The notes below the pieces were generated by a model. The model was not told the DNA's origin, searched no databases, and saw only the letters and a program-made list of their open reading frames with translations. A stretch of DNA of 64,000 nt from Tribonema minus (lineage: Eukaryota > Sar > Xanthophyceae > Tribonematales > Tribonemataceae). The stretch covers positions 62,001 through 126,000 of the forward strand of contig JAFCMP010000334.1 in assembly GCA_017506865.1 (NCBI GenBank), read 5' to 3'. Of this stretch, positions 1-63,141 are shown piece by piece. Both the position numbers and the translations under genes were made by a program. Every line of letters begins with the position of its first letter. Position 1 is the stretch's first letter.

Positions 1-112
1 CATGCGGTATGCATGTTAGCATGCGCAACGTACGAATGGCGTGCCCCAATCGATATCATCAAGACTGCTGGTGGCATTGCAGTGTGACACTTGCTTGCGT
101 GATGTTGCGCAG

Positions 113-3100
113 GCGTTGGCGCGCGTCGCCACCAACCGACAGCTGGACTGGGAAGGAGCCGTCAACAGGGTGCTGCGGGGGGAGGTACCCGCAGGGGGAC
201 AGGCGGGGGGCTCCAGAAGAGGTACATCCAGGGGGGGGGGCACATGGAGGAGGACGTAGGGGAGGACCCCGAGATGCCATTTGGCGGCGGCGGCGTTTGA
301 GTGGTTGTCGTTGCGACGCTTTCAGACTGTCATACGACATGTAGATTCCTTACAGCTAGATGCCAATCATCTGGGCTTTTTCGCGCCCTGAGCGAGAATT
401 AATAAAAAGTACATACTGCAGTTAATAATAAGAGGTACATACTGTAGGGTGCTGCGGGGAGAGGTACCCGCAGGGGGACAGGCAGGGGGCCTCCAGAAGA
501 GGTACATACTGTAGGCGCGAAAGTCACACTGGTGTATTGTTCGCAGCGAATTCTGTTTGATCAGGCAGTTGTTAAATACCCACCAAGTGCTCCTGATCTG
601 GGCGCAGAGGTGAATGCCGCATAGGGCATGGACCTGCCGCATCTGATGGGTACTTCAAAGTACTTTAACACGTAACGTTCCAATGTGCAAGGTGTCCGAG
701 TACACTCGCACTTGAACGCACTGCGCAGGCTGTGTAATGGGCGCAGTCGTGGCCGCCGCCTAACCCTAACCTTGATCCCAACCCTAACCCCTAATCCACC
801 TTGCTTCAAGTTCTGTTCATAGCCTTCACGAAATTCGGATACGTGTTGTGCTGCGTTTGTCACTGACTTCTTGATGGTGCGTCCATCCAGCCAAACTGTA
901 CTTGAAGTTGAAGATAAATACTCAGAGTATCATGTGCACAAGTCGGCAGCCGCTCTTGCACTGATACACACAGCATTTGGAGGCTCTGAAAGCAATTGAC
1001 CACCTACTAGCCATCACGCTGTGCTCGTACGCATTCGCGTACTGCTTGTGTACTGCCGCCACCGCAACCGCCAACGCACTACACTGTAGTCATCGCGCAC
1101 TGTACTCAACGCATGGGTGCACTGCTTATGTACTGCTAATGTACTGCACCACCACAGCAAGCGCCGTGGCGGAGGCCAAGGCAGATGGCCCGCCACCAGC
1201 CGACGGCCGCCGCAGCAGTGGCAGCAAGGGGCAACCTGAGGAGCCACCGCCGCAGCAACTGCAGGTAAGCAATTCGAAGTCCAACTCATCAGAATTGCTA
1301 TGCTGCAGTAAGCCTTAATTTTAAATTACAGTCCAACTGGACTTCATCAGAATTGCTACGAGCACTCTTGCTGCCGCTGGGTAAATATTTGTGTGCGAGT
1401 GTGCGGCCCGAACCATGGCAAGTACGCAAAGTACTCGGGGGTGAAATGTTTTGTAATGCGCAAGGATCCATTTTCACGAACTAGCGAGGAGCTACCGCCT
1501 CAGCAGCTGCAGGTGAGCGATCCGATGGTAGTTGCAGGAAGCAGATCTGGCGAAGAAGGGTGTACAGGCCTAAGATAATTCAGCGTTGTACTTCAACCTT
1601 GAAGTTTAAGTTCAAGTTTCTCAAAGGCCACGGAATTCGAACGATGTTATTCGGCGCGTGTAAGCCGTCGCAGGGGCTCAGGCTATGGCCTGGTGCAGAT
1701 TGGCACAGATTTTTTCAGCTGCGTGTGTGTGTTATCAAAGCGCTGCAAGCATCGAGCCCACATGTATGCTTTGCTCACTGCAGAGACTGCTAGAGGGTGA
1801 TGGCGATGGCGCCGCCGCTGCAGCAGCGTTCGATTGTGTAGGCGCAGATCCTGGTCGTGGCCCGAACCCTAACCCTAACTCCTCCCCCCCCATGCTCCGG
1901 CAGTTGCTTGTTCACCGATCGAGCGACATGGTCGTTGCTGCCTGCGCGTTTTGTTTAGGGTTAGGGTTAGGGTTAGGGTTAACCAAACCCTAAGGCAACG
2001 GCTGCGCCCGTGTGCATGTCTGCGGCAGCGCTCACTGGCATTCCGCATGTATCACACTCTAAGCGTGTGTTGCGAATTCGAGGGTTAGGGTTAGGGTTAG
2101 GGTTAGGGCAACGCCGCCGACTGCTAATACTTTGCACTGCTTCAACGCAGTCTTCAGCTGATACTTTACACTGCTTCAACGCAGTCTCCTGCCAGATGTG
2201 CATGAGATTGCGTCCCGCACGCCAAGTTGAAGTTGTGAAATTGTCGCACCGACCAGATGTACGTGTACATTATACGTCTGGAGTGTGTATTTATACATGT
2301 AGGTAAAAATGTATGCATGGCGTGGTCGCTGCAGGCCAAGGGCGACGGCGGCGGCGCCGCTGCAGACGCGGCGGCGCTCGCGGCGCAGCAGCAGCAGGCA
2401 CGGCGGCCGCGTGCGGCGTCTCGGGCCGGCTCCAGGTACGCTTGTGAGGCCTGATAACCCTACTCAATCACATAGAAGTATAGAAGTATATATAACCTCT
2501 GGAAGTGGCACATATCTGACCCAATGACAACAGCAGTACACAGTCGAGGCCTGACGGCCTCACGCTACTGTATGTAGTACTTGACCCTAATTAATTGCAG
2601 CAGCAGCGGGCATGGCGGCGGCCTCGCGCGGCGTCTCGAGCTGGCTCCAGGTACAACTGCGAGGCCTGATGACCCTAACCCTCGGACCTGGCCCTACTGA
2701 TAAGAGCGGTACACTGCTGAGGCCCGGACAGACTAACCTTTTCGAAGCCGTGACTCAATAATAACAGCAGCAGCAGGCACAGCGGCCTTGCACCGCATCT
2801 CTAGCTGGCTCCAGATACACCTGCGAGGCCTGGTGACCTAGGTGAACTGTTGAGGTCTTATGACCCTGACCCTAGGACCTGACCCTAGTAAAGTACAGCA
2901 GCAGCAGCGAGCAAGGCGGCCAGCGCGGCGTCTCGAGTCGGCTCCAGGTACACTTGCGAGGTCTTGCAACCCCAACCCTGAAGCTGACCTGATCTCAGGC
3001 CAGATGATGCTTTGGTCAAAGTGTAACCAGTGCTTTGGTCAAAGCGCAATCACTGTGCTGATGGAAGCTTTTTCAAAGTGTAAATAATGCTTCGGTCAAA

Positions 3101-7800: not shown

Positions 7801-10800
7801 ATGAGAGGAAAACCCTGTATGCATGCCTTGACAAATTTGTGGCTCGACCCATGAGGTACCGACTTTATTTTACTCTAATCAACACTTGATGAAGTAAGGT
7901 CTGTGTTCATGTGCAACTGCAAGTGGTGTGATGGCGTGAGGTGAGAAACCGCGGACTGAGCCTTGACAAAATTGTGGCTCGACCCATGAGGTACCGACTT
8001 CAACGACATTGACAGTTGAAGTTTCAATATTTGAAGTTGACATAATCTTCATGTTTTGTGGCTAGATGTGAGGTTTTGACGCTCTCATAAATCCCAAATA
8101 CAGGTGTCGATGATTGCCGTCAACTGCAGGCAACTCCACTGGGGCAGTTATTTTGGCAAGATTTTTACTTTCAGGCAGACCCACCTCTTTCCCCCACTGG
8201 TGGGCGCATCTCGGCTCTCTGCTGCTGCGCACTGCTGCATGTCCTCTGCCGCGTCATTGCGCTGCGCAGCCTTTTGCTGAACCCTTCAAACCCGCTTCAC
8301 TTTCTAACATATTCCACCCTAGGTGAACCTTTGCGCTCATTTCAGTCAGGCACATCTAATTTGACTGCTGCTGTATGTCTGACTTTATTCTGCTGCCGCG
8401 CCATCGTGCTGTGCAGCCGGAGAATACAAACCGTTTCCTGCAGCTGCTGGCGCTGGCGGCAGCGGAGATGCCAGACTCCGCCGCCGCCGTGCAGTTTGTC
8501 TTGGGATCTGATGGCGGCGACGGGGCGCAGGCGCCGACGGTAAGCTGATGAGCTGTACATATCGTATAGCCTATACGATATGTATACGGTATAGGTACTT
8601 GTGAGCTATACATACTGTATAGTGTAGTCCGGGCGTCGGCACCGACGGAAAGCTGTTGAGTTGTACCTACGTTATAGTGTATGAGCCATACCTACCGTAT
8701 GATGAGCTATGCATACAGTATAGTGCAGCAGGCATACGTACCGTGTCGATTCACGCGTACCGCATCTCCACGTGTGTCTCTGCTCGTGCGCCAGTGCATC
8801 TGACACAAGCTCGGCACTGCAAGATTGTGCACCATTTGCAGGCCTTCGTTGTGGCTTGCACGTGCGGGGCCCTGTGAAGCTTGCAAGTACTTTGCAAGCA
8901 TTGCATTTGCATCTGCGCGGCGGCGGCGTGCTTGGACAGACGGTGGCATGCACTGCACCTGAGCGCGGCTTGCGCATGCGGGGCACTGTGTACCAACTTT
9001 GCAAGCATTGCCCTCGCGTCTGCACGGCTGCTGCGCGCGTGGAGCTTTCGCTCACAGCTAGACATTTCATTTTCTTAGGGCTAGACTCTTTTTTTGCTTA
9101 GAGTTACATGTGGGCGAGCACTGCCTGCTCCAAAGCATCACTGCGCTCGCTTGTCAAACTCGCGCACATCAACAGCCAAGCGGCTCGCTGGTCCGCCCAC
9201 GCCGCCCCCCCTTTTCACAGTACATCGAGACAGCGTCAACGTGTTCACAAGATGCACGTAGATTCTGGTAGCACGCTGAACATCCACCATCTGGGTTCTT
9301 TCACGCCCGCAGCGAAGGTTTCATAGCACGCTGAACATCCACCATCCGGGCTCTTTCGCGCCCGAAGCGAAGACTTTATAAAGAAGTACATGCGTGCTGC
9401 GCACTGATGCAATTCACGCAACATGGTTGCATGCGGCAAGGTGAGTCAGCGCTCTGCAAGTCAGGGCTCAATGACTGAGCCGGTGCCCAATTCACGCAGT
9501 GCTTCAACGCGTGAGGCAAGGTGAGTCAGCGCCCAGCGAGTCAGTGCTCCATGACTGCGGCAGTGCTCAGTGGACTCAGCGCTTCATTGTGTCGGTGCTT
9601 CATCGCTGCGCAGGAGGCGTACATCGAGACACTTGATGAGGGTGTTCACGTGTCACACGCAGGCTCTGGTAGCGAGCTGTGAATCCACCATCTGGCTTCT
9701 TTCGCGCCTGAGCCAGAACTCATCAAAAGCAGGTGCATGCCAAGCACTGATGCAGTGTACGCAATGTCATCGCTGCACAGGAGGCGCCGCCCGCCGTGGC
9801 CAGAGCGTCATCCGTGGCAGAAGGCTCCGCAGCGCCTGCGCCATCGCCCGTCGCGCCGGAGATTGCCGAGCCACGCGATGGCAGGCTGAACAGGGCTGCT
9901 GCACCAGGTACCACAATCAGCGGTGCTCAGCATGTGATTACTAGGGTTAGTTTTAGCGTTGGGGTTAGGGTGAGGGTTAGGGTCAGGGTTAGGGTTATAG
10001 GGTAGCCGAGCCGCGCAACGTGGCTTGGCAGGGCCGCAGCTGCTGCAGGTCGCGCGCGAGATCGCCGAGCCACGTGATGGCAGGCTTGGTAGGGCTGCTG
10101 CGGCTCCAGGTACCGCGCTGTCAGCAGTGCTTAGGGTTAAGCTCAGGGTTACAGTTAGGATTAGAACCAGCGGCGCCCGAGATCGCCGAGCCGCGCGATG
10201 GCAGGCTCAACAGGGCTGCTGCTGCGCCAGGTACTACGCAAGCAGCAGTGCTCAGCACGTGTTTAGTAGGGTCAGGGTCAGGGTTAGGGTTTAGCCAAAC
10301 CACGGGATGGCAGGCTCGGCAGGGCTGCAGCTGCTCCAGGTACCACGCAAGCAGTGCTCAGTGCGCCTCTACTAGGGTTAGGGTTAGGGTTAGATCTAGG
10401 GTAAAACCGGTCGCGCCGGAGATTGGTGAACCGCGAGACGGCAGGCTTGGCAGAGCAGCAGCGGTGCCACACGTAATCGGCAGTGCTCAGCACGTGTTTA
10501 CTAGGGTTAGGGTTAGGGTGAGGGTTAGGGTTAGGGTGTAGCCCATTCGCGCGAGGGCAGGCTCGGCAGGGCAGCAGCGGCGCCAGGCACCACGCAATCA
10601 GCAGTGCTCAGCGCGCATCTACCAGGGTTAAAATGAGGGTTAGGATTGGTGTTTAGCGGCGCCGGCTCCTTAGGGAAAGGGTTGGTCAATGAGCAGTGGT
10701 GCAGTGATCGCCAGATGTGCACCACTGCATCGCAGCAGCTCGTGCAACCCTTTGGGTGAGGGTGGAAGTTTGGGTTAGCGTTCGTGTTGGCCTTACAGGT

Positions 10801-20201: not shown

Positions 20202-23200
20202 TCATTCATCCGACAGGCTGTCTTCATCATCATCGCTTGAACGCGAATCCCGCCGCCGCCGCCGCCGCGCGCGCTCCTCCCCCCGCGCCCCCCCTCTCGG
20301 GCCCAGAACTCTGTACTCTTGCCGGCTCTGCGAATCACCGCGCTGCTGCTCGGATGACGCTGCCTGAGCATCATCGTCATCGTCGCGATGCGGCGCGCCG
20401 CGCACTGCTGCTACCCACGCTTGCCGCCGCTCGTAGGCGAGCTCTCGCGAGCACAGCACGTGCTCTGCAACGACGTCCTCCAGGTCGGCCGGGAGGCGCC
20501 GCGTGCGGTCCTGCGGAGGGGTAGGTAGGTATTGAGCGAATTGCAGACTTCAACAAGCGAAGGTCGGGGCAGAAATTTGAGGTTTGAAGTTCGATTGAGG
20601 TTGGGGCGCCAGGTGCGGTCCTGCACATGGGCAGGTACTGAGCAAAGTACCATCACCGTGATCATCGTGTGTAGTTTTTTTTACTGGCAAAAACTGTCGC
20701 TTGGGACGCAAAAGAGCGGAGATTGTTGATGACAAGCTCGCTACCAGCATGTACGTGCACTTTTCAACAACTTGTAGCATCTCAGTGCGCATCGACAAGG
20801 GTGCGGTCATGCAAAGAGATCAACAGTGAAGCTCCGGGCAGACACTTGAGGGTTGGAGTGGTGGTTGAGGTTGACGTAAAAAGAAAGAAATCAAAAAAGT
20901 GTGTGCACGGCAACCTCAAAAGTAGGGTTGCAATGAGCGGTGGCTGGAGCCTGAGTGTGTGCATGGTGAGCAGTGCGACCTTAAGTAGGGTCAGGGTTAC
21001 AACAAAAGGTGGGTGAGCGTGTGCACGGCAGCTGCAACGTATCGGTGCGGGCGTCTTTCTTCTTTTTTGCGAACAGCGCAGGTCTGCGAGTTTAGACTGC
21101 ATGAACAAACATTGCTGCCGTTGCTATAGAGAACGAGTGCCATGCGCCGTGATACACGATCACGACTTGCCATAGTGCTGCAACAGAGCCACGATGAAGA
21201 GGGGGAGGCCATCCATGATCACAAATATCGGTTGAGACATAGAAGTATGTTGCTACACCGACGATCGGACAACAAGTTGCGCAGTCTCAAGAGCCACGGA
21301 CTTTTATGCAGTGACGCTATGGCCATAATAAACAGGCCCATGCAAAGGGGGCATGCCTGATGCCAGCTGTATACTGCACCTTGCTTCACTGCTGCATGCT
21401 TGTCACCAACATGAGTGGGACACCAACACCTTGATGCACTGGAATTGAGCAAGCACATGCGCCAACATATAGGGTACAACAACACCTCGGCGCACTGGAA
21501 CCGGGCAAGCACGTGCGTCATCAGAAGTGTGGGACATAATTTTGTATACTAAGGGTTAGGGTTAAGCGCCCACCTTGTCGCTGTAGCGCCTGCTCTCGTC
21601 CAATAATGCCTCGCTCTCCTCAAACCTGCAAAAGCAGCGCACCCAAGGCGCGCGGAAGCATTGTCACTAGCAAAATTTCGGTTGAATGCACAAGGCATAC
21701 ACACCACCTAGCAGGTGCCGGCAGGCGATGTGTGGCTGGAACGCTGGCGCTGCGAATTTAGCAGGAAGAAACTAGGTGGCGGTTCTGCCACCACAGAGGG
21801 GCCCTAAGGAGGGCGAAAAGCATCACCCACTGTCATCTCTTCCTATGGAATATCGCAGCCAATAAAACAAGCACGGCGTGTGGCACGCCGCAGCTGCTGC
21901 TCCAGCAGCTCGTACTTCAACGCATGCACACTTGTATGCCTTTCTAGAGCAATTGCACACTTGTATGCCTTTCTAGAGCAATTTCATAGCACATACTTCA
22001 AATAACTTCAAAGGTCCGACCAGTACTTTCGACCACAGTCAATGAGCAGAATGCGCGCCTGCACCGTCCGGCGCGCCGCAGCTGCCAGGCAAACGTCTTG
22101 TACTCCAAAGTACTTGGGAAACGCATCCACTTTCAGTACAAGCAGATCATGTGCAGTACTGCTAAGTACTTTGAAGCCCACGTTTACTACAATACAAAAC
22201 TCTGCAGTCAACGAACGCGTGCACGCACAGGCCGGCCGGCGCGCCGCAGCTGCCACGCCAGCACATCATACACCCAAGCATGTATACTCGCCTTCTTCTC
22301 AGAACAATTTCATTCCTACTTCAACGTACAACCAAGAATCACAACAAATACACGCATGGAACTGACAGACCCACGCGACGTCCGGCGCGCCGCAGCTGCC
22401 ACGCGAGACCCTCGTGCTTCCAGGCATGCATACTTGCACACTTTTCTAGAGTAATTTCAGAGCATACGCGTCAGAGTTACGCCAGCATTCCAATCCACAG
22501 TCAACGAGCGGAACGCGTGCACGCACCGTCCGGCGCGCCGTAGCTCCATGCGAGCACCTCATGCACCATATATACTTGCATTCTCTTTTCAAGATGATTT
22601 CACATACCGCGAAATATACTTCGAAGTACCTCGCGAACCACAAGAAGTACTTATAAAGTCGGCGGCGGCGGCGTTTGAGTGGTTGTCGTCGATACACTTT
22701 CAGAAGTCACACGACATGCAGATTCCGTACAGCAGCATCAAGTTAGACCATCATCTGGGCTTTTTCGCGCCCTGAGCAAGAATTAATAAGCAGTACTTAT
22801 AAAGAAGTAGAGTGAAGTCAATCAACGCATGCACGCACCGTCCGGCGCGCCGCAGCTGCCACGCGAGGCTTTCGTACGCGCTGACCGTGGGCGCGAGGCC
22901 GCGCGCGCGGCACCCACGCAGCAGCGCTTGGGCCTCATCCAGTGCGCCGTACGACGCGGCGACGCGAATGACGCGCTCGTACATGTGCGCGCTGGGGGCG
23001 ACGCCGGCGGCGGCGGCGCTGCGCATGACGGCGAGGAGCTCCGCGTGGCGCGCGCCGGCGGTGGCGATCGCGTCTAGCGTCTGCACAATATGGTTGGCGT
23101 CCAGCTGCGGTGGCGTGTATGGGTGTGTGGGGGAAAGGGGGGGGGGGGGGGGTTGAGACATGTGTTGCGATGGGGAGGTTGAAGTTCGGGGGTGTGACGT

Positions 23201-30500: not shown

Positions 30501-30540
<40 letters not shown>

Positions 30541-32478: not shown

Positions 32479-32533
<55 letters not shown>

Positions 32534-35106: not shown

Positions 35107-35307
35107 CTGCCTGCAGGGGGTAGGGGGAGGGGGGATAAGGTGTGTAAATTTTAGCGCTGTAGCAAGGACTTTAGTGCTGCAGCGTCTCACAAGATTGCGA
35201 CTGCAGTGTATCGAAGATCGATGGGGAAGGGGGGGAGCTCCTCTGGTACGCCGTCTCATCCCAGGATGGTAGACATTATTACTGCTGGAATGTAGCAGCA
35301 ACGACAA

Positions 35308-42289: not shown

Positions 42290-43942
42290 CTTCAACACCA
42301 AGTTCAACATTAGGCTGCCCCCGCGATCTCTTGCTTCAACCTGAGGGTCGGTGCGCTGCGTGTTTGCCTGGCCCTAGATGCGCCTGTTTGAGCTGTTCGC
42401 ACCTGATTGTGCACCTGGCCCGCACGGCTGATGTCATCAGCCTGCCTGCCTAGTAGCTCCCCGGCCCGGGAAGGCACTGTGTGCGCGCGTCGGAGAGGCA
42501 GGAGCAGTCGATGCGTGTATGCAGTGGGCAGCAGATGGGCGGATGCGGCGCTGCTAATCAGCAGGTGCCAGCAACACAGTGCACTGGGGTGATGTGCATG
42601 CAAGCGGAAACTTCATTTTTGGGGGGCTGGTAGCAGGGGGCAGACGGGGGGGGGGGTGGTTGCTTTGAACCGCCGCAAATGTACAACATATGCACCTGTT
42701 GTGTGTCCTCTGTGTGACATGTGCTATATGTGCAGCATGTTGCAGTGATGGCCATGCGTGACAAGTCGTTATGCCTGCCATCATTGATTGAGCCTCGAGT
42801 GAGTGTCTATTCCGTGTGCGCTGCGTGTTCCCGATAGAGCATGATGTGAAGAGCATGGAGCGCAGCCGCGTGTGTATGTGCTGCTTGGGTGTGGTGCAGT
42901 GTTGTCATCTTCATGTGATTTTAGCCACAATCACTTGCTTGACATTGTGTGTGGGCATATCTCAGCTTGCAACAGTCATCTCAACGTCCACAACTCGATG
43001 CCCCAACTGCTCGCGGCAGAGATTTATCATGGTGTATAAGTGCTCAGTGAATTTGCCTACCTCCAACATGCCCTAGGCCGCAGCCGCGCATGAGTCGCCG
43101 CCGCTTGCAAGTGTGCTGAAGGACTGCGGCAGCACGGTGACACTGCTTGGGCCTGAGAACCAAGACAAGCCATGCGCCCATTTGGCGCTTTCTTGTGCCG
43201 CATGAGGGTGCATGAGCAACTGCAAAATCAGCACCGTGACATGTATGTTGCTCTGGAATGATGCGCCCATTGAATTGCTCTGCCGCATGAAGTTCATGAG
43301 CAACTTCAACGTCATGAGCAGTCCCCCTTGCACCCTCAATTGCGGCGCCTGCAGCTTTCTCCAATGTGTGCCCTATGCATTCAAATGTACTGATAATATG
43401 GCATAGCATTTACGTCACTGCATGATCAGCACACGTGCATCCCACGGCAAGGGCTCCATTCCACAGGGACACTCCAGTGATCGTCATCTGACGCAAAGGG
43501 CCATACTGTGTGATTGCTGTATTGTATCAGCGGTTGTAGACATGTGAACAAAGCACAATATTCAGCGGCTTGAAGGTGCGACAGCTGAGTGCATACTATC
43601 ACACATACCAAGAGCAGCGCTCAACAACCTCAGCAGCCAGCAACCGCGTTCAGCAGGTGCGCAAAGCGTAATTCCTTGTGACATGTGCAACACATTGCAT
43701 TGTGCATATTCCAACCGAGATGTCTGAGTGGACCTTATGCTGGAGCTACAGTAGGCTACGCTGAACCAGTGTCATGCGCAAATGTCGACTAAACCCACAC
43801 TGCCAGGTGCTACGGGCTCAAGAGACCCCTGTATTGCCTCCGCACCTCACTCAACAGAGGGGGATCCCCTCCACTTGGGGCAAAGTGGGGGAAGCGCAGC
43901 ACTTCACGAGATATTAGCTACAAGTGGCGCACACAATTTTGC
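42290..43942. other. Intergenic, prohibitin 3' side to fascin-like gene
   Basis: No gene recognised. A local duplication GCCGCATGA-GTTCATGAGCAACT lies at 43198-43222 and 43284-43310. A G10 run is at 42648-42657. Frames on both strands are short and without family resemblance. Confidence 0.5.
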
Positions 43943-44714: not shown

Positions 44715-44914
44715 CTGGCAAACAGCAAGACAAACAACACGTGCATGAGGAACCCAATGCTGCCAAAGCAATCCTCACGCTAGCTGATCGAATCTCACTA
44801 AACTTATGATCGACGAGCTGTGCTGGTGTGCGCACTCTCCGAGCGGCATGAATGGCAGCCTCGCCCGAAGACTGCCGCGGCAATGAAGGAGCCGCATTGA
44901 TGGAATCGGACATG

Positions 44915-47039: not shown

Positions 47040-47240
47040 CCAAGCACATTGTGCACAGCTGCACGCACGTATTAGAGGGGTTTCGGCGACCAGAGTGGTG
47101 AGGTGGGGCAAATCACCAGGCACGCCAGCATCCAGCAGTCGCCTAGGATCTGGATTGTTGCCATCAATCGTCAACTGCTTCACTCTCCTGCTGCTCTCTC
47201 CTGTTAGCTGGCAAGGCCACGAGTCTGACCGGACCCAAAT
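47040..47240 (-). CDS. Candidate upstream exon of the leucine-rich protein
   Basis: A short minus-strand frame contains RRVKQLTIDG and later DLPHLTTLVAETP, a spacing and wording that match the LP-x-L-x-T-L repeats of the protein encoded just downstream at 45522-46823. It lies 0.2-0.4 kb upstream of that frame, where a 5' exon is needed. A possible donor (GTGCGT) lies near 47068, but I could not find an acceptor that joins the two in phase, so the link is a proposal only. Confidence 0.3.
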
Positions 47241-52385: not shown

Positions 52386-55300
52386 TTACTTGTGGGTGTT
52401 GAGGCACAGCCAGACCGCGCTGTTGCACTTGAAGCCGGAGCCAAAGGCGACCTGCGCACGCGGCCGGATGACGACGAGGTTGAGCGTCAAGTTGAAGTTA
52501 TGACAGATGTTGATAGTTGTGTGACTGGCATTCCACAACAGAACAACGCAAAATGTGCTGTCCACAGGCAGCGCCGCATCACCGCAGTGCTGGAAAAGCG
52601 CCGCTTGCAGTGATGCGCAGTGAAATTTGAAAGGTGAGGTTTCACAGGGAGGAGGCGACACACCACAATAGATGACGTGAACAGCTGGTGATCTGCGTGT
52701 CGGGGCGCCTCCAGTCATGACATGCGGCACGCTGACTGTCAATGACGGCGCGTCACTTCAACTGATGAAGTTGAAGTTAAACTGACGAGATGTAAGAATG
52801 GTGTGCGCGTCAGACATGGCAACCGCCTCACGCGCCAGCAGGACGCTGGCCGCGCTTGACGTCCTGATTGTGCAGGATGAAGTAACACCTTATCACGTAA
52901 CCTCAATATCAACTTTAGACAGTGCGTACCTGCAGGATGCGCTGGCCGCGCTTGAGGTCCTGGTTGTGCAGGATGAAGTCCATCTCGTACCAGATGGACG
53001 ACGACGACGTGTTGCCGTAGCGGCTCAGCGCCTCGCGCGACGGGAGCGTCTGCTTCTGGCTCAACTTCAACGTCTTCTCGATCCTGCAGAGGGGGGGGCG
53101 GGGGGCACGACAGATACCGCGTGAGCTGCCTCCGAACATGCGGGCACAGGTTTGAAGATGCAGGTTCGATAAGGCAAACAGGCGTTCACTTGAGCGTACG
53201 TGGACGCACCATGCGTCGCGGTGGACACCCTTTGCACGCTGCGAAGTTTGGCAGCAGCGAGCGGCACTCGTCAAAACGCAGGAAGCGGAAGGGGTAATGG
53301 ACCGTCAACTTTCCCAGCCTCTAGTCAGTGCCGCCTTTTCCCCTGAGTTGGCAGAGGAGTTGCCTTGACAGGACGACAACGCGTCGATTCAGCCATTGGA
53401 TGCCCCACCAATGAGGGTGACTCACCCATCAATGACGCCCCTGCATGTACGCAGAAGTGGTCGATGCCGCGATTGAAGTCGGATTTGTAGGTACGACTCC
53501 TTCAATTGAGGTTGACTCACCAATCGATGACGCCCCTGCCGCCCGCGTGTGTGCAGAAGTGGTCAATGCCGCGCTTATACAGGAATACAACAGACACATT
53601 TGAATTACGCAGAGTGGTAAATGCCGCGCTCATACGTGAACACAACAGACACATTTGAACAACGAGTTTGACTACTTGAACAATTGAAGTTGACTCACCC
53701 ATCAATGACGCCCCTCCCCCCCGCGTGTATGCAGAAGTGGTCGATGCCGCGCTTGAAGTCGGGTATGTAGGTGCGCGGGCGCGGCACCTTGGCCGCGAGC
53801 GCGGGATTGCGCTTCTCCAGCACGCGCGTGAGCCGGCGGCACAGGTACTTTGCTGCGTAAGACTGTAAACACAATCGTGAGAGATAAACACAAGGTAGCA
53901 GCATTGAGATGGTGCGTGGGAGAAGATAAGAGGTACCAACATTGGAAGTAAGGGAGCGCTAAGCATGGGGTGCGCTTCTCCAGCACGCACGTGAGCCGGC
54001 GGCACAGGTACTTTGCCGCGTATGACTGCGAACACAATGGTCCGTAAGAGAATATGAGAGGTAGCAGCGTTGAGATGGTGCGTGAGCGAAGTAAAGAGGA
54101 GGCAGCATTGAGACTGAAGGAGCGCTGATGAGAGAAGGGAAACCAATTGTGAGACAGGAGAAACGTAAAAGAGACAAAACACGAATTGATGGACCTTGAT
54201 TGGTGGACTCCTGTGCAGATGATCACGATGGTCCAATACGCTGGTGAAGTGGTTGCAGTCCAGTGGGTCTCAGTCTTAGGGTTAGGGTTAGGTTAGCCTA
54301 ACCCTAACAGTCACAACAGACCTAGGCTGCGGAGACCTGGGGGTCCACACACGGACCCCGTGCCTGGAGGTATGCACTTCGAAGTAGAAGTATGATTATA
54401 TGCGGCCCCTCTCACTCAGCGCCCGCAAAGACACCTGGGCTTTCTTCTACACAGAGGACCGACACAGGTGCTGCGCAATGTGATTGTTGCTACATGAAGA
54501 CTTCAAGAACAATAGATGCGGTTGCCTGCAGAAGGGGTGTGCTCACCTTGATGGTAGGTATCTGTTCCGACAGCGGCAGAACGTGCGGCCCCAGCGCCGT
54601 GAAGTTGTCCTGCATGGCCTTCCCCGCAACTTCAACAATCTGCAGCACAGGCCAGAGGAACAATGGCATGGAGACTGAGAAAGACGTGCTTCGCTGTGCA
54701 TCAGCGCAATACATGTCAGTGCTCAGCACTTGTGTGGAAGTAGTATGTTGCTCCGCACTTGTCCTCAAGTACTCAACAACACTTGGTATGCCTGTTGCCG
54801 AAGCAAACCAGTCAATTCTGCGTGCAAGTAATATCCTAAAGACATTAGGGCTGTGGTCAAGCTGAGCATCGCCATCGCCTGCTCGCTCGCCCCATCTCAA
54901 CCTCGCGCTTGGAGACACACTCTACGTACTTTGCATGATGAGGAGCGCAACGCATGTTGTGCTCAGCACTTACACAGAAGTAGTGTTTGCTCAGTTGCAA
55001 ATCTTGACAACACTTGATAGGCCTATTCCCCAAGCAAAATAAACAATCCCGCATAGAGGTACTTATTCTAGAAACCTACTACTAGGGCTATGGTCAAGAG
55101 GAGCATCACCATCACCTGCTTGCTGAACCCCCCCAACCAAGCTCCTTCCCGCCCTCAAGATTGCACTCTATATGACTGTTACACATGTGTACATTGCAAA
55201 GTCAGATGGAGCATCGACACACCACCTCCTTGACCTCCTCTATGCATATATATACTTCGAAGTAACATACTGAACACCCATGCCTCGAACGCTAAAAAGC

Positions 55301-58300
55301 GTGCACACAGAAGTCTTTTGCCTACTGTGGTTATGGTGGCACTGATTGACTCGTGGCCAATGACTGCAGGAGCGGCGACCACGGTTATTGGTGGAAGGCA
55401 CTTGCGGCTGACCATCCCTTGTCACCTAGAGCTCTACGATCTATTGATTCGTTTTTCATACATGTACACATTGAGCGATAGGTGCTAGGTCAGCGGAGCG
55501 TCACCATTACCTGCTTGCTGAGCCGTACCCCCCTGTGCCCCAGGTCGTCCTCGCACTCAAAGACGCACTCGTAGGCATCCAGCCCCTCGCCCTGCGTCCT
55601 GATGGTGGTGAGCAACTTGAACTTGGCGCGCATGGCGTCCTGCCACTTGTTGCTGCGCGTGAGTGACGGCGCAAGGTGCAGCAGCTTCTCGTGAGGATTC
55701 CATGTGACAACTCCAAGTCTAGATACACTTGAACGGCGCACAGTGCAGCAGCTTCTTGTATAAGGATTTCATGTGACAACTTCAAGTCTAAATGAGACTT
55801 GAACTTGGCACGCATGGCGTCCTGCCCACTTGTTGCTGTGAGGGATGGCAAACGGTGCAGCAGCTATCTCGTGAGGATTTGGTGCGACAATTTCAGCTCT
55901 GAAAAATAAGCTGATGCTCACTCAGAGTTTTGAAAAACATCAAGTCTGACCTCAACTCTCTGCGTCACCCTTTGTGCCAGCTCTGACTCTGAATCAGGCA
56001 GCTGACTTCAACTGTGAACAAGAACTTGGCACGCATGGCGTCCTGCCACTTGTTGCTGTGCGCGAGTGACGGCGCACAGTGCAGCGGGTGCTCGTGAGGA
56101 TTTGATGCGATAACTTCAAGTTTCAATGAGACTTGAACTTGTTGGCGCGCACGGCGTCCTGCCACTTGTTGCTGCGTGTGACTGACGGCGCATGGTGCAG
56201 CAGCTGGTCGGCGAGGATTCGATATGACAACCTCAACTATGAACAAGTCGGTACTCACACAAAAGCTCGAGTCAAAACATCAAGTCGACCTTAACTTCCA
56301 GAGTCACAAGCCAGCTCCAGCTCTGAAACTAGTCAACTTGCAACGCTGAACGTTCATCCATTCGTTGCTGCATGTGACGGCGCATGGTGCAGCAGCTGCT
56401 TGTCAGGATTTGATGCAGCAACTTCAACTCTGAAGAGTGGGCGCCACTGCAACAGTGCAGCAGTTCAACACTCACCTGAGCACAATGGCCGCGCCGCCGC
56501 AGCGGAACAGCGTGTTCTGCAGCAGCATGGAGCGGTCGTTGCCGTGGTACAGGTTCTGCGTGAGGTTCTCCGTGGAGACCACCAGCGCGATGCTGTTGGG
56601 GCGCGCCATGAGAAGATCGCGAGCCAGGTCCTGGTGAAGCATGAAAGCAGGGGGGGGGGGGGGGTCATCATGGGGGGTGGGTCCATCAAGATGCACTGGG
56701 TCTGGATTGTCACTGTGCTCAACTTGTACTGTTGATTTTTCAGTTCAGCACAGATCAGTCGGGGCACGCCATGAGAAGATTGCATGCCAGGTCCTGGTAA
56801 GGCAAAAGGGGGGGGGAGTGTTATCAAGATGTACTGGGTCTGAGTTGTCAGTGTACTCCGCGTGACAGTTGATGTGAAGGTCAGCAGTGATCAGTCTGGG
56901 GCGCACTCTGACAGTATCCCTTCTCAGGTCCTGGCGGCAAGCATACGAAGCAGGGCACACTCGAACTGAACTGTGTGTGAACTCAATCTGAACAGTCCAT
57001 GCACGCAATCTGGGATGCTTGATACGCAGAACAGCAGCTTTGCATGGGCTTGTCCGCGTGAGCCTCTGGCACAGTGGTGAGTTCTCAGATGCACAGTTGA
57101 AGTTGAAGTTACACTTGAACTCACCACCGCGATGATGCCCGCGCTGCAGCCCATGCCCGCCAGGTTGAACGAGCGCACGTCGCTGCGCAGGCCAAACTTG
57201 TGGATGATCATGGAGCACAGGGACGGCGTCGGGCTGAACAGACTGTTGAAGTTGAACAGGAGAGGAAGGCAAGTCAGCACTTGAAGTCAGCACGCGAACC
57301 GGCTGAGATCAAATGTGGCAGGAGTGCCGTGGCTCGTTGTGCAGTTTGTGCTTTGGTCAGGGCGGAGCACGACGATAGGCCAACCTGGTTGATATTTACA
57401 TATGAAGCACAACCGAGGGCGTCTGGCTGAATAAGACTGTTGAGGGTGTCACGGGCAGCAATGGGTGCACAGTGAGCATGTTGAGCTCGAACCTTCAGTG
57501 AGGGGAAGTTTGGCGACAAAAAAGGTTGTTGCCCAATACATAGGTGGAGCCATCATGCATGGGGCTGAGGAGCCAGCAACGGTGCAACCGAATCAAACAA
57601 AGTTGAACAAAACTGGGGAAGCAATTGCGTGTTGCCTCTTGCCTGCAGCTGACAACCCGGCCGAGCCATCGGTGGCTACAACAAATCCGAGCAAAGTCGA
57701 ATGAAACAAAACCTTACATGCGTGCTGTCCCTTGCCTGCAGCTCACCACAGGATGTCAGTGTCCCCTGATGCTGGTGCATGCGTTACGAACTTCAGTAGA
57801 GCCGAGTTACAGGTACTTCTATACCACATGAGGAGCTTCAAAACTTCAAGTGCATGCCATCTTTTGCCTGCAGTTCACCACCAGTTTGTCATCACGGGTC
57901 AAGTGCATTTCACCAGCCACAACGAGCAAGTGTGCTGCAACAATGCCAAATGAGCGCTCAAAACTTCAAGTGTGAGCCGTCGCTTGCCTGCAGTTGACGA
58001 CCAGTATGTCAATGTCCCTGGGGTCTGTGTGCGTCTTGGCCAGCGCCTTGGCGACTATGTCGTACATTACCGCCTCCGCCTCCGCACGGGCCCCATCCAC
58101 AGATCTGTGAGACGACATTGAGCAATGTACTTCAGCATGATAAAGCATGACAAGTGGCTCTGGCTGGTTTGCATGCCCTCACCGTAACCTAGCCCTGAGA
58201 AATGGGCAGAGGACAGCGCAGTTCAGCAGCGTGACGCTTCACAAGTGGCTCTTGCTGGGCCATGCACATGAATTGGCCAACAACGCTCAACATCCATATC

Positions 58301-61300
58301 ATACCATACGTACGTACCTGTTGGAGGCGGGGGGGCTGTCCTGCAGGCAGCGCGTGAATAGAGGGGGCCCGCACGCCATACATACAGCGCTCACCACACA
58401 CATCATACCATACCTACGAACCTGTCTGAGGGGGGTGAGCTCTCCTGGAGGCAGCGCGTAATGGAGGGGGGCCACGCCGTGGACTGAGCCGTGCCACAAC
58501 TGGCCACAACGCTCAACAACAATAAACTGTACCATACCTACGTACCTGTCAGAGGGCGAAAACATATGCCATCAAACCAAGCCATGCCAGATTTACCCAC
58601 AACGCTCAACACAAAACCATACCATACCTGCGCACGTACCTGTCAGAGGGGGGCGAGCTCTCCTGGAGGCAGCGCGTGATGGAGGGGGGCCAGGCCGTAG
58701 ACTGAGACGTGCCCGAGTTCGCCAGGATCCGCGCCATGAACTCAATGCTGTCGTGCGTGAAGCACTTCTGCCGCCGCATGATCTGCGCGAGAGCGCGACA
58801 ATCAGGGGGGGGGGGGGGGGGGCTGTGCTGAGCGCTGTGATAGCAGCAATTTTTGGCGACAACGGGGGGTGCTTCAGGACTGGCGAGTCGGCCGAGCCGC
58901 CCCATCTATCGGTGCCCACGAGCAAAGCGGTGCTCGCACGCTGATGACCCCCCCCCCTAGCCACAGCAGCGCCGGCGTCGACAGCAACGGCAGTCCCTCG
59001 CGCGTCGCAGCAGCGCTCTTCGTCGGAGCACTGAGCACGACACTGCACAGCTCAGCGCCGCATAGGGGGGGGGGGTTAGAGGCAGGGTTAGAGGCAAAAA
59101 TCGTGCACGTGCGTCCCACTCAGTCGCCTCTGGCGCGAGCATCTACTGGGCGCCCAAGTGGCCCGCCTCAATGAGCTACGTAAGTGTGGCGTGCTACTCG
59201 CAGGCGGCTCAAACACTCCCAACTAGCAGGTACAGCATGCTTATACTTCAACATGTATGTATAGCATCAAGCAACTAACATCAATGAGCTGATTGTGCGT
59301 GACCGCATAGCTCCACAAAGATGAAGTACCATACTACTACTTCAAGTGCAAACATGTATACCACCTACTTGTGCCATATAGGTACCAAAGCAACTAACCT
59401 CAATCAGCTGCTGGTGCGCGTGACCTTCCAGCTCGACGCTGATGAAGGTGCCATACTTCTACTTCAAGAGCATACTCATATACCACCTACACCAACTTAC
59501 ATGCATTTACCTCAGTGAGCTGCTTGTGCGTGACCTGCCAGTTCTGCGCTGATGAAGCACCATACTACTACTTCAAGTGCATACACGTATATACCTAGAC
59601 TACACCCATTGGTACTTCGAAATATGTACTAACCTCAATGAGCTGCTCATGCGTGACCTTCCAGCTAGCGGGCGGCTCAAACTGGGCAAGCCACACCTAC
59701 TAATAATCATAATGAAAACGATTCAAAAGATCGTAGAGATCCTCAGTATCATACATTTGAATCTGTACATATGTACTGACCTCGATGAGCTGCTCGTGCG
59801 TGACCTTCCAACTAGCAGGCGGCTCAAACACGGCAAACTACACCTATTAATATCCATCATCATATCTCTATTTAAATAGAAATACTTCTATGTAAACAAG
59901 TACTTGCCTCAATGAGCTGCTCATGCGTGACCTTCCAGCTAGCGGGCGGCTCAAACACGGCAAAGTCCAGCAGGTACACTGGCGTGCGCCTGTGCCCCAG
60001 CCACCAGAGCGCTGCCACCACCAGCGCCGTTGCGCGCCACCCCAGGCCCACCGCAACCGCCGGCGACGTCGACAGCGCGCTGCGGTAGCCATCATATGCC
60101 ACCTGAAACGACACCACATAGAAGTAGTATAATTGTTGATTGGAACTTTTCTTTGTTTGATCATAATGGCAATATGGCGAATATGTGCTGGATTCATTGA
60201 TGTGATGTGTTGAGAAATGCTGCCACCACCAGCGCCGCCCACCGCCACCGCCGGCGATGTCAACAGTGCGCTGCAGTAGCTATCGTACGCGACCTGAACT
60301 TACACCACACAAAAAATGTGCTGAAGTTGTGCGTTTGCTGCTTTGAGAAATGCTGCCGCTATTGCTCAGTCATGTGCACAGATTGAGCACTGCCACCGCA
60401 GGCAACGTCGACAGCGTGCTGCGGTTGCCGTCATGCGCCACCTAAATCGACACCAGAAAAATACGTGCTGAATTCATAAATGAGTTTGCTGTGTTGAGAA
60501 ATGCAGCGACGCAAGCACGTCATGTGCATGGGTTGAGCGGCGATATCGACAGCGCGCTGCGGTAGCCGTCATATGCCACCACTAGAAAACATATTGTTCA
60601 CTGGAATTTGTTCTGAATGGCAAGACAGTAATACATGTGCTGAGTTCATCAGTTTGCTGTGTTCAGAAATACTGCAGCTATTGCTCAGCACACAAGCATG
60701 TCATGTGCACAAGTTGAGCATTGCCACTGTCGGCGACGCAGACAGCGTGCTGTTCAATGCAACGCACTCTCTGCACCAGATTCGTCACCGCTGTGCCTCC
60801 GTTGCAAGCAAAGGCGGCTGTGTGCCGCGCTTCCCCAGTCATGAGCAACTTCAACTATGACGCGCCGGCGCACCAAGCGGCACCGCAGAATGCAGGGGCC
60901 ACCTCCTTGCGGCAGTGCTCCACGAATGAATATATGCACAGCGCTCAGCAGCAGCGCTTCAATGTATGGGTATGTATGTATTGTTCGCGGCAGCGCTCAA
61001 CAGTCGGCAGCGCGCTGCACTCCGGCGCTGCAACTGTCATGGTGACAAGGATTTTTCAGCAAATTATCAACTGAGGCATCAGACACTGCGAGTGTTTAGT
61101 TAGGTAACGATGTATTGTAGAGCTGTCTGTTCAGATCTACTCAGGACCCCTGCAACTGCCATCACGATTGTGCCAGTCCAATGGCGACAAGCACCACACA
61201 GATGTTGCACAATCTGGCCAACAAAGTGCGAAAAAGTCCACAAAGACCACCGCGCAGCTGCTAGTGGCATCCGGAAGCCTATGAACTTCAGACGAATAAG

Positions 61301-63005
61301 TTACGTATATTCAATGCATGTGCTACTGCGGACAATGAAATCGACACCGCCAAGTACTTCTGATGATGGTGCACTTTGTTGTCTTTCCCCCCTTGCCCCG
61401 TGGCATAGAAGCCACTTCCGCTGCCTCGGCTGCACCTGAACTGCAGCATCTGCACTATAGGCCCAGTTCCGCAGAACGCTACAATACTCAAATTCTGACT
61501 CACCGCCAGGGAGGCCCTGTTGGCCACCGCTTCCTGCAGCATCTGCTCGCGAGGCCCACTTCACTGATTGCTGAAACCACTCAGACTGCGACTCACCATC
61601 AGGGAGTCCCTGTTGGCCACCGCCTCCAGCAGCATCTGCACTCTAGGCTCACTTGAGCACAACACTACACTCAGACTTTGACTCACCGCAAGAGAGTCCC
61701 AGTTCGCCACCGCCTCCTGCGCCACCTGCGCCACCAGCACGCCCACCGCCGCCAGCAGCAGGTAGGGTAGGTATGTAGCGCTGACAGTCCACCAATTCAC
61801 CAGCCGTATCATGCGCGACTTGCGCACATGGTACACCTGCAAGCAGACGAAGCCGCGGCACAATGAGCTATGCATGTATTATGTATTATGTTTGCATGTT
61901 TGTGTGCATGTTTGTAACAGTATGTATGTACAACAAGTCATACACGGAGCCGCGGCGCGAGGAGTATGTAGGCATGTACGTATGTAGGTACGTTTGTATG
62001 TATGTTACAGTATTTCTGTCCAACAAGTGACACACCTGCGCGCCGACAAAGCTGTGGCGCACTGAGGTATTCATGTACATGACTATAACAGCATCAATGT
62101 GCACACAATCAAGCGACAGGGTTGCGCGTGGGGGCGGGAGTCTATTGGTGGTGACGCTCAGAGTGGTAGGCGGGCTGGCCAGTGAAGTACACCGCACTTT
62201 GAATCAATACATGTGTACTTCAACAGTACAGACCGTGGGCGCGACAGTGAGTCGTCAGAAGCCTTGCCAGGTATGGCCTGTGCCGCAGATGTTTTGGCGG
62301 TCACATTGCGTCAAACGATGTTTACCACAGCATGGTCGTGGTCGTGCTGCATCAGCGGCGTTGACCGGAGCAGTGCGCTGGAATTAGGGCTACGATTCGT
62401 GGCAAAGCTGATTCATGGCAGTTACTGTTGCATGGCAGCTACTACACGTGTATTGCGGCACGCCGCAAAGAGGAACAGCATGCGAGCTTTCTGAGACAGT
62501 TAAAACACTGTGCACTCACAATTTCCTACACCGTGCATGTGCTGCACGGCTCTGAGAGAGCTTCAATGTGCTCACTTGTGATGGCAGCTACAGATGTACG
62601 TTCGTGACAGCCCCCTGCTCCAGCACCACGCTTCTGTTTAATTGTCAGACGGCATGCTGTATTGGTGAGGCGCAGTTGTGATTTGCACAGTTCAGCCTGC
62701 AGTTAGCGACGAAAATCGACCCTTGTTATTTTGGGGGACTCGGTGCGTGCGACACAGCTTGTTGTACTGAAGACTTGCCCGTCAACAGTATTATGTACAA
62801 CTAATGATGCGTGTATGACGACTAAAGATAGCACAGTGGCAATTGTACCCATGTCTAACGAGCAAGAGCGTGTGCGGTGAACTGCACAAGTGCTGCAGGC
62901 TACTGATCGTGAGCATTTGACAGCATGGGCAGGGTGATCTGACATCGCAGCACGGAGCATTTGACAGCATGGGCAGGGTGATCTGACATCGCAGCACGGG
63001 AGACT

Positions 63006-63037
<32 letters not shown>

Positions 63038-63141
63038 GCAAGCTCGTCGCTTGCCTTGGGGTCATTGTCCACTCCCGACAAGTCCGTCATCGACACATCG
63101 TTGCGCCTCATACGCGGCGCCCCGTTCTCCCTTTCCCCCAT
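52386..63141 (-). CDS. KCS: 3-ketoacyl-CoA synthase (plant-type fatty acid elongase, FAE1/KCS family), complete
   Basis: Twelve exons in transcription order: 63055-63141 (ATG 63141), 61687-61836, 59908-60102, 58640-58782, 57988-58104, 57125-57242, 56476-56630, 55511-55652, 54547-54639, 53699-53862, 52930-53083, 52386-52451 (TAA). All join in frame to 527 aa; plant KCS are about 490-530. Two hydrophobic segments (residues about 51-70 and 95-118) should anchor it in the ER. Then [44 protein letters not shown] (catalytic Cys about 263), [48 protein letters not shown] (His about 446), [13 protein letters not shown] (Asn about 479) and [13 protein letters not shown]. The His-to-Asn spacing of 33 equals that of FAE1 (H391, N424). 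It condenses malonyl-CoA with long acyl-CoA, the first step of very-long-chain fatty acid elongation. Introns 1, 3 and 5 have GC donors. Confidence 0.97.
52825..54050 (-). repeat. Exon-edge echoes around KCS exons 52930-53083 and 53699-53862
   Basis: 52828-52882 copies the donor end of exon 52930-53083. At 53415-53480, 53505-53580 and 53610-53700 the donor end of exon 53699-53862 (plus strand ACTCACCCATCAATGACGCC, GTGGTCGATGCCGCG) is repeated, so the catalytic-His region is copied three times. At 53960-54030 the acceptor end (GTGAGCCGGCGGCACAGGTA) is repeated. Confidence 0.92.
54845..55135 (-). repeat. Exon-edge echoes (donor side) after KCS exon 55511-55652
   Basis: The plus-strand text AGCATCACCATCACCTGCTTGCTGAACC at 55095-55125 and a weaker version at 54855-54890 copy the donor border at 55500-55525. 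They are about 240-400 bp apart; a dispersed repeat (55296-55465) lies between the true border and the first copy. Confidence 0.78.
55735..56410 (-). repeat. Exon-edge echo array (acceptor side), four to five units, before KCS exon 55511-55652
   Basis: The block CATGGCGTCCTGCCACTTGT then TGCTG-x-GTGACGGCGCA-x-GTGCAGCAGC and TCGTGAGGATT recurs at about 55812, 56030 and 56150, with a shorter copy at 56365. Each has about 35 bases of exon, the CTG (CAG) acceptor, and about 60 bases of intron. Units are joined by ACTTCAAGT-type text. Confidence 0.93.
56755..56950 (-). repeat. Exon-edge echoes (acceptor side) before KCS exon 56476-56630
   Basis: CGCCATGAGAAGAT followed by GCCAGGTCCTGGT at 56765-56800 copies the exon start at 56605-56635. 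56905-56940 has a weaker copy ending TCTCAGGTCCTGG. The nearby GTACTGGGTCTG-x-TTGTCA intron text is doubled too. Confidence 0.85.
57625..57965 (-). repeat. Exon-edge echo array around a GC donor after KCS exon 57988-58104
   Basis: The true border reads (plus strand) CGCTTGCCTGCAGTTGACGA. Copies lie at 57640, 57730 and 57860 (CTTTTGCCTGCAGTTCACCA). In all copies the donor equivalent is GC, not GT, so the unusual donor predates or travelled with the duplication. Period about 90-130 bp. Confidence 0.88.
58300..58565 (-). repeat. Exon-edge echo array (donor side) after KCS exon 58640-58782
   Basis: The border ACGTACCTGTCAGAGGGGGG plus AGCTCTCCTGGAGGCAGCGC recurs at 58313, 58418 and 58543. Spacing about 100-125 bp. 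The 58418 copy keeps about 70 bases of exon; the 58313 copy keeps the donor. Confidence 0.92.
59160..60760 (-). repeat. Exon-edge echo arrays on both sides of KCS exon 59908-60102
   Basis: Donor side: CTCAATGAGCTGCTCATGCG with TGACCTTCCAGCTAGCGGGC recurs at 59637, 59778, 59510, 59398 and 59280, period 112-141 bp, similarity falling with distance. Acceptor side: GACAGCGCGCTGCGGTAGCC with the ATATGCCACC border recurs at 60260, 60405, 60545 and 60735. This exon therefore has about nine echoes. Confidence 0.94.
61410..61675 (-). repeat. Exon-edge echoes (donor side) after KCS exon 61687-61836
   Basis: CTGACTCACCGCCAGGGAGG then CCACCGC and GCAGCATCTGC at 61495-61555, and a second copy at 61588-61645, repeat the donor border at 61678-61740; a remnant lies near 61430. 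The donor GT is kept in both main copies. Confidence 0.9.

What the first reader, a model, noticed from the sequence alone, without database searches (positions are those of the whole stretch)
1..63141. Exon-edge echoes: introns built from tandem, decaying copies of their own exon borders
In all four well-modelled genes (about 40 introns) most introns carry one to six copies of a block made of exon end + splice site + adjoining intron. Copies lie at 70-250 bp spacing, on the donor side, the acceptor side, or both, and generally become less alike with distance from the true exon. Clear cases: 9781-10610 (six units), 30885-31310 (five extra units of 70-90 bp), 59280-59908 (five donor echoes), 55652-56400 (four acceptor echoes), 23104-23745. 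That is far more than chance or ordinary intron repeats, and it is border-centred. The inference is that introns in this genome grow by repeated local duplication of the exon-intron junction, outward from the exon, with older copies drifting. I know of models of intron gain by tandem duplication of AGGT-containing segments, but not of a genome where nearly every intron shows border echo series.
Basis: partly seen in the sequence, partly recalled or inferred. Interest (0 to 1): 0.95.

Follow-up and report, generated by a model that had tools for sequence, protein, structure and literature searches.

The report
Repeated exon edges inside algal introns
In this yellow-green alga many introns contain tandem, slowly decaying copies of the exon edge next to them, a widespread case of the exon-border repeats ("mirages") known from a few amphioxus genes, and a natural test of how splicing picks the right site among near-identical ones.

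Summary
The echoes are real. In three genes modelled here 23 of 29 introns carry border-linked tandem duplications. In 97 introns (those genes plus kinesin and HSP70 genes elsewhere) 57 of 193 borders and 45 of 97 introns carry a strict echo: common, but not in nearly every intron, and uneven between genes.
Copies are direct and local. The exon half has diverged 0.5-0.65 times as much as the intron half, as expected if the exon is fixed and the copy drifts. With exon letters excluded, border-touching families still exceed a uniform-duplication model, 30 of 70 against about 15%: a bias of roughly 6-fold (2-12), for units above 50 nt; shorter repeats, which that method misses, are mostly interior.
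Not supported: decay with distance, outward growth, intron birth by duplication.
Best reading: mirage-type minisatellites, as known from amphioxus, founded by duplications straddling splice junctions, tolerated because the original sites stay in use. Why junctions are favoured is open.

The parts
52389..63111 (-). 3-ketoacyl-CoA synthase (KCS, fatty acid elongase) gene, 12 exons, 11 introns; 9 of 11 introns with a border-linked duplication family
   Evidence: Spliced alignment of public T. minus protein P0001 (517 aa, no gaps); families
59160..59964 (-). donor echoes of KCS exon 3 (edge at 59908; true donor is GC): four strict echoes at 127, 274, 397, 507 nt, and a fifth 744 nt away found with a longer exon query; exon depths 57, 56, 31, 33, 71 nt
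55615..56434 (-). acceptor echoes of KCS exon 8 (edge at 55652), three strict ones at 183, 403, 519 nt; the linked family covers 95% of the intron 55653-56475
60046..60752 (-). acceptor echoes of KCS exon 3 (edge at 60102), three copies with exon depths 67, 54, 42 nt
58271..58713 (-). donor echoes of KCS exon 4 (edge at 58640), three copies
53808..54126 (-). acceptor echo of KCS exon 10 (edge at 53862), one copy 166 nt away
61441..61729 (-). donor echoes of KCS exon 2 (edge at 61687), period about 93
57730..58011 (-). two donor echoes of KCS exon 5 (edge at 57988, GC donor), 120 and 253 nt away
20205..35909 (-). pentatricopeptide-repeat protein gene (16 exons used here, 15 introns); 12 of 15 introns with a border-linked family
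   Evidence: Spliced alignment of P0121; three annotated exons set aside as possible echoes; the first exon's donor is doubtful
30893..31333 (-). five donor echoes of PPR exon 31301-31435 at 87, 161, 251, 333, 402 nt, sharing nearly one exon breakpoint (28-33 nt)
23041..23767 (-). four acceptor echoes of PPR exon 22839-23104
27299..27671 (-). three donor echoes of PPR exon 27625-27756; the annotated protein uses one echo-like stretch (27529-27567) as an extra exon
39169..42290 (+). prohibitin gene (part): exons 39169-39363, 40015-40227, 40831-40953, 42167-42290
40873..41343 (+). donor echoes of prohibitin exon 40831-40953, period 159, exon part 75-81 nt
39841..40046 (+). acceptor echo of prohibitin exon 40015-40227
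9781..10653 (+). six-unit array; looks like donor echoes of an exon about 9781-9908; gene not modelled
   Evidence: reading frame and splice sites by eye only

Best explanation
The echoes are mirage-type minisatellites. A local tandem duplication (units spaced mostly 85-250 nt) straddles a splice junction. Because the original splice sites next to the full exon remain in use, the extra copy becomes intron, the protein is unchanged and the duplication can persist; duplications wholly inside an exon are removed by selection. The array then turns over like any minisatellite (units gained anywhere in the array, not only at the exon), while intronic copies drift and the exon edge stays fixed. Founding duplications hit junctions several times more often than intron interiors. 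Shown by computation: copies, direct local orientation, frozen exon, drift of the copies, junction excess for units above 50 nt, link to intron length. Inferred: that RNA uses the outermost site, that exon-internal duplications are purged, that the excess is mutational, and any link to transcription or splicing.
For: 57 of 193 borders with at least one strict echo (cut-off 34; null maximum 26 in 579 trials). 251 direct against 4 inverted self-matches. Exon part of echoes 88.9% alike, intron part 81.2%; donors 0.878 against 0.746 at +7..+30, acceptors 0.874 against 0.805. Coverage by local duplicates falls to 0-0.1% at 90-120 nt inside exons. 40 border-linked against 18 interior-only families. 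Intron-only test, free of the frozen-exon advantage: 30 border-touching of 70 (gene bootstrap 0.29-0.56) against 0.15 (range 0.10-0.25) in 8 uniform-model runs; simulated bias 4-7 fits. Nearest-echo offsets mod 3: 19, 16, 20, so no reading-frame filter. Echo splice dinucleotides mostly intact among aligned echoes (GT or GC 58 of 63, AG 41 of 44). Youngest pair not tied to the border.
Against: Raw border coverage is no higher than deep-intron coverage. In the intron-only test KCS (3:9) and prohibitin (0:3) show no excess; it rests on kinesin/HSP70 (19:19) and PPR (8:9). That test is blind to periods of 50 nt or less; Tandem Repeats Finder shows those mostly inside introns (2 border, 10 interior, 1 other) and, for periods from 50 nt, 8 border against 9 interior arrays, though it catches only the more alike arrays and some of its interior ones are parts of border series. 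The simulations assume a size distribution, deletions and a steady rate. No RNA reads were seen, so use of the outermost sites rests on annotated proteins and homology. Copy-number difference between alleles was not shown: one haplotype pair (3.5 kb) has no array-sized indel in its aligned part, and I did not check whether it holds an array.
Confidence: 0.78

Rival explanations
1. Uniform local tandem duplication with no junction preference. Duplications arise everywhere, exon-internal ones are purged, and border ones only look more frequent because the fixed exon keeps them recognisable.
For: Flat coverage along introns; exon half clearly more conserved than the intron half; short-period repeats lie mostly inside introns (2 border, 10 interior). 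Visibility is a real effect.
Against: Uniform simulations that include the frozen exon give 15:31, 13:80 and 43:102 linked to interior families against 40:18 observed; with exon letters left out 0.15 expected against 0.43. About 8 kb between window genes has no local duplicate with a period above 50 nt and one 44-bp two-copy repeat, but that sample is small.
Confidence: 0.17
2. One reading: the junction itself is copied again and again, each new copy laid down next to the exon, so similarity falls with distance.
For: Some borders have echoes with different exon breakpoints, as in KCS exon 3 donor (57, 56, 31, 33, 71 nt) and acceptor (67, 54, 42 nt). Border and nearest echo are the most alike pair in 14 of 32; by my own arithmetic about 7 are expected if any pair is equally likely and about 12 if any adjacent pair is.
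Against: No significant gradient; most alike pair includes the border in 21 of 32 against 17.5 for random pairs; adjacent identities 0.818 (border-nearest) and 0.792, p 0.25. Many series share one breakpoint (L036 54-56 nt; L049 23, 23, 23; PPR 825-nt intron 28-33).
Confidence: 0.1
3. The exon DNA, not the junction, is the hotspot for tandem duplication; selection removes everything except duplications that reach into the intron. A variant of the best explanation that differs in where the lesion arises.
For: Would give the same border excess; exon edges are richer in G+C (0.63-0.65) than the adjoining intron (0.51-0.54).
Against: Not separable from the best explanation here. No tendency for deep-exon units: median exon depth 43 nt, 95th percentile 72, though selection could cause that.
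Confidence: 0.15
4. Echoes are kept by selection as spare or decoy splice sites.
For: Echo dinucleotides mostly intact among aligned echoes: GT or GC 58 of 63, AG 41 of 44; AG kept at 86 of 92 aligned positions, exon positions 0.874.
Against: GT positions are kept like exon positions (0.870 and 0.878), the neutral expectation against a fixed source; the counts omit echoes whose alignment stops before the site.
Confidence: 0.05
5. Intron birth by duplication of an AGGT-containing exon segment, or a mobile intron (introner), leaves these copies.
For: Both are established routes of intron gain (PMC4974935 passages; PMC9860276 abstract start and one passage).
Against: The birth signature (exon end against intron end, exon start against intron start) is absent: 0 of 96 and 0 of 97. 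Exon edges do not recur in sampled introns of other genes (2 of 79, 0 of 79 at p<0.001; none of 579 at the strict cut-off).
Confidence: 0.02
6. Assembly artefact or chance.
For: None found.
Against: Copies mostly differ by 10-30% from each other, which assembly errors do not produce; shuffled sequence gives zero.
Confidence: 0.01

Closest known systems
Mirage minisatellites of amphioxus (Adh3; globins BflGb6 and BflGb9), PMC3087553, abstract and passages read; the original Canestro 2002 paper is not held
   Same: Minisatellite-like tandem copies spanning exon-intron boundaries, at donor or acceptor, lying in the intron; units of similar length (150-160 bp in globins); many but not all units keep AG/GT.
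   Different: Reported there for single genes, with allele and somatic length changes and RT-PCR. Here a xanthophyte alga, 57 of 193 sampled borders, junction excess measured; RNA not tested and allele variation not shown.
Potato RdRp intron gained by a duplication crossing an intron-exon boundary, PMC4974935, abstract and passages read
   Same: A tandem duplication that crosses one intron-exon boundary.
   Different: One event that made a new intron with a new donor; here no new intron is seen and the existing one grows.
Intron gain by duplication of AGGT proto-splice segments (Rogers model; Drosophila cases, PMC2891723, passages read)
   Same: Tandem duplication involving splice signals.
   Different: Source is wholly exonic and yields a new intron; that footprint was tested and not found.
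Small tandem duplications by fill-in and end joining of breaks with 3' overhangs, PMC8355091, passages read
   Same: Local direct duplications; a possible founding mechanism.
   Different: That paper speaks of insertions under 100 bp in the human genome; units here are often longer and end chemistry was not testable.

Membership tests
Mirage minisatellite (amphioxus type) | Tandem direct repeat units that span an exon-intron boundary | tested here: met
   57 of 193 borders, 251 direct v 4 inverted matches
Mirage minisatellite (amphioxus type) | Both 5' and 3' boundaries can be affected | tested here: met
   33 of 96 donors, 24 of 97 acceptors
Mirage minisatellite (amphioxus type) | Units from tens to about 160 bp, partly degenerate | tested here: met
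   Spacing median 133 nt (5-95%: 85-250), so some units are longer; exon part 88.9%, intron part 81.2% alike
Mirage minisatellite (amphioxus type) | Many but not all units keep AG/GT signals | tested here: met
   GT or GC 58 of 63, AG 41 of 44 aligned echoes
Mirage minisatellite (amphioxus type) | Regular splicing is not disturbed | tested here: inconclusive
   Annotated KCS protein fits the outermost sites without gaps, but P0121 includes echo-like exons; no RNA data
Mirage minisatellite (amphioxus type) | Copy number differs between alleles | tested here: inconclusive
Mirage minisatellite (amphioxus type) | Turnover among units rather than ordered growth from the exon | tested here: met
   Most alike pair includes the border in 21 of 32 v 17.5 expected; homogenisation within clusters itself was not tested
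Intron gain by AGGT duplication | Intron end matches upstream exon end, intron start matches downstream exon start | tested here: not met
   0 of 96 and 0 of 97
Introner or other dispersed element | Same sequence in introns of other genes | tested here: not met
   Exon edges in one random intron of another gene: 2 of 79 and 0 of 79 at p<0.001; none of 579 at the strict cut-off; not a whole-genome search

The most novel reading that the evidence does not exclude
Splice junctions themselves are hotspots for small tandem duplications in this genome, through a transcription- or splicing-linked lesion, so that introns grow mainly from their ends; a genome-wide junction-borne mutational process of this kind would be new.
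Probability: 0.35. Interest if true: 0.85.

Novelty: new member of a known kind. Interest (0 to 1): 0.6.

Why it matters
Junction-spanning minisatellites were described for a few amphioxus genes; here they occur at 57 of 193 sampled borders of an alga far from animals, so the process is not a cephalochordate oddity. Each echo is a near-identical decoy splice site of known relative age in its native gene, which makes two open questions testable: how the spliceosome tells a real site from a copy with much the same 40 or so flanking bases, and how introns gain length. The fixed exon edge gives a built-in reference for dating each copy. In-frame echo-like stretches already appear as exons in one annotated protein, so they may feed exon and repeat gain, or mislead gene prediction.

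Tried and rejected
Tandem Repeats Finder alone misses most diverged arrays. Motif association: poly-C/G, telomere-like and TTGAAGT-type motifs within 100 nt of a border do not differ between borders with and without echoes (Fisher p 0.59, 0.49, 0.70). Exact breakpoint homology could not be read because copies are too diverged (simple two-copy cases; the junction listing gave no obvious motif by eye). Paralogous HSP70 genes L053 and L060 (aligned blocks 82-92% alike) differ by roughly 120 nt between aligned blocks in one intron, but the extra stretch was not analysed. PF00501 and PF00069 rows were not used for borders. IFT54-like gene at 9-17.5 kb (name by recall from one exon): no protein found. 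LRR gene P0122 (44-49 kb) fits with odd splice sites in its first exons and was left out of the counts. Structure prediction was not used.

Found on checking: the self-match search used for families and coverage does not see tandem repeats with a period of 50 nt or less (planted pairs of 30-50 nt were missed, 55 and more found). All family counts therefore concern longer units; the simulations were scored by the same search.

Rows dropped before counts: 8 of 90 bracketed exon pairs gave no acceptable splice pair; 14 of the 93 assigned introns failed score, frame or length limits (79 kept). For the PPR gene three annotated exons (32973-33050, 32364-32406, 27529-27567) were set aside as possible echo exons before counting, which favours echoes there. 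Echo dinucleotide counts leave out echoes whose alignment stops before the site.
Full report
WHAT THE WINDOW IS. The window lies in a 158-Mb assembly of 554 contigs. A protein joined from window exons by eye matches the 3-ketoacyl-CoA synthase of Tribonema minus (Xanthophyceae, by recall) at 99%, and the contig length of that record (2,043,622) equals that of the window's contig. Two more T. minus proteins, a PPR protein (P0121) and an LRR-like protein (P0122; the LRR label is by eye), come from a contig of the same length.

GENE MODELS. Spliced alignment of P0001 gives KCS with 12 exons and 11 introns, no gaps, 3 of 11 donors GC. P0121 gives the PPR gene, with its 3' exons placed separately. 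Prohibitin was modelled from window peptides. For the rest of the genome I used kinesin and HSP70 exons found by Pfam models, fetched 46 gene regions and placed splice sites between exons with consecutive model positions: 82 introns plus 11 of KCS, of which 79 passed quality limits. With PPR and prohibitin the final set is 97 introns. These borders rest on homology and annotation, not on RNA reads.

THE OBSERVATION. The last or first 30 exon bases recur in the own intron (p<0.001) at 25 of 79 donors and 20 of 79 acceptors, 36 of 79 introns at one or both ends; against a random intron of another gene 2 of 79 and 0 of 79; exon bases 90-120 nt inside 0 of 68 and 0 of 66. With a stricter 42-base query and a cut-off above the largest of 579 null scores, 57 of 193 borders and 45 of 97 introns have echoes, one to five per border, spaced mostly 85-250 nt. 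In the window genes 23 of 29 introns have a border-linked family. Genes differ strongly: none of 5000 permutations reached the observed heterogeneity; HSP70 genes L050-L053 have 2 of 44 borders, L049 6 of 10.

BORDER-CENTRED OR NOT. Raw coverage says no: borders are spanned at 21 of 79 and 16 of 79, deep intron points at 549 of 2175. But most of that deep coverage belongs to arrays that include a border copy: 23.7% of intron bases against 3.6% in interior-only families, 40 against 18 families. Uniform-duplication simulations with a frozen exon gave 15:31, 13:80 and 43:102. Visibility matters: in junction-crossing alignments the exon part is 88.9% alike and the intron part 81.2%, in the direction and near the factor of two in divergence expected when one copy is fixed and both drift in the intron. 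To remove that advantage I repeated the analysis on introns alone. Observed: 30 border-touching, 40 interior; uniform runs pooled 92:448. With eight runs per setting the border fraction is 0.15 (bias 1), 0.27 (2), 0.38 (4), 0.44 (7), 0.55 (12), against 0.43 observed (gene bootstrap 0.29-0.56). I take the bias as about 6, plausibly 2 to 12. The result is carried by kinesin/HSP70 (19:19) and PPR (8:9); KCS (3:9) and prohibitin (0:3) alone do not show it.

LIMITS OF THAT TEST. The self-match search cannot see tandem repeats with a period of 50 nt or less. Tandem Repeats Finder finds such short repeats mostly inside introns: 2 border, 10 interior, 1 other; for periods of 50 nt or more it finds 8 border, 9 interior and 1 other, but it catches only the more alike arrays, and several of its interior ones (for example in the KCS 535-, 823- and 1125-nt introns) are parts of border series. 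So the junction excess is claimed for the longer units only. Three stretches between the window genes, 8 kb in all, hold no longer-period duplicate and one 44-bp two-copy repeat at 38661-38746, a small sample.

HOW IT WORKS. Copies are direct (251) and almost never inverted (4), and several simple pairs lie nearly end to end, others with gaps up to about 150 nt: tandem duplication rather than insertion. Exon depth of the units has median 43 nt, quartiles 33-55. Nearest-echo offsets are even modulo 3 (19, 16, 20), so echo sites seem rarely used. Aligned echoes mostly keep GT or GC (58 of 63) and AG (41 of 44), for GT at the rate expected from drift against a fixed source (GT positions 0.870, exon 0.878), for AG somewhat above it (86 of 92 against 0.874). 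Introns with border families are longer by about the length of their arrays (963 against 603 bp; arrays 414 bp). Echoes of one border often share a breakpoint, sometimes not; the most alike pair includes the border in 21 of 32 cases against 17.5 for random pairs, and is border plus nearest echo in 14 of 32 (about 7 expected for random pairs, about 12 for random adjacent pairs, my arithmetic); no significant gradient with distance. That fits arrays founded once, sometimes more than once, turning over internally, rather than steady outward growth. Intron birth by duplication leaves a footprint that is absent (0 of 96, 0 of 97).

WHAT IS KNOWN. [quoted passage not shown] That is the same anatomy. 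A potato intron arose from a duplication crossing an intron-exon boundary (PMC4974935, abstract and passages); human repeats at exon-intron boundaries may make introns (PMC2812944, passages). Ten searches of the open library listed no report that I recognised of such repeats in Tribonema or of a genome where about half the introns have them; listings were capped and most subscription papers are not held, so this is weak evidence of absence. The T. minus genome announcement did not appear in those listings.

VERDICT. A real and striking feature, a new and apparently genome-wide instance of mirage minisatellites. The junction preference is supported for longer units but its cause is unknown; I cannot separate a junction hotspot from an exon hotspot filtered by selection. 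Annotated P0121 contains in-frame echo-like exons (32973-33050, 27529-27567), either real exon gain or a gene-prediction error.

Noticed in passing
Retroposon-like, unclassified.
   Followed up: partly
window 32494-32584, minus strand: A 28S ribosomal RNA fragment (Rfam RF02543, 67.6 bits) inside a PPR intron.
   Followed up: no
window, 16 tracts, e.g. 1955-1978, 2085-2108, 28744-28761: Short interstitial telomere-like (TTAGGG)n tracts of two or more perfect units, some carried inside echo units of the 9.8-10.6 kb array.
   Followed up: partly
97 introns of the sample: The octamers TTGAAGTT/AACTTCAA and poly-C are strongly over-represented in introns against base composition; no link with echoes found.
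   Followed up: partly
window 32973-33050 and 27529-27567: Annotated exons of public protein P0121 that look like in-frame echoes of the preceding exon end.
   Followed up: partly
KCS donors after exons 1, 3 and 5: GC donors: 5 of 97 in the whole set, 3 of 11 in KCS. At exon 3 the true donor is GC while the echoes read by eye carry GT.
   Followed up: no
L054 (C179) and L055 (C90): The assembly seems to hold some haplotype pairs on separate contigs (97.9% alike), useful for allele tests.
   Followed up: partly
window 44039-48985: LRR-like gene region (P0122) with no local duplicate above a 50-nt period and only two short ones (22 and 18 bp), in contrast to its neighbours.
   Followed up: no
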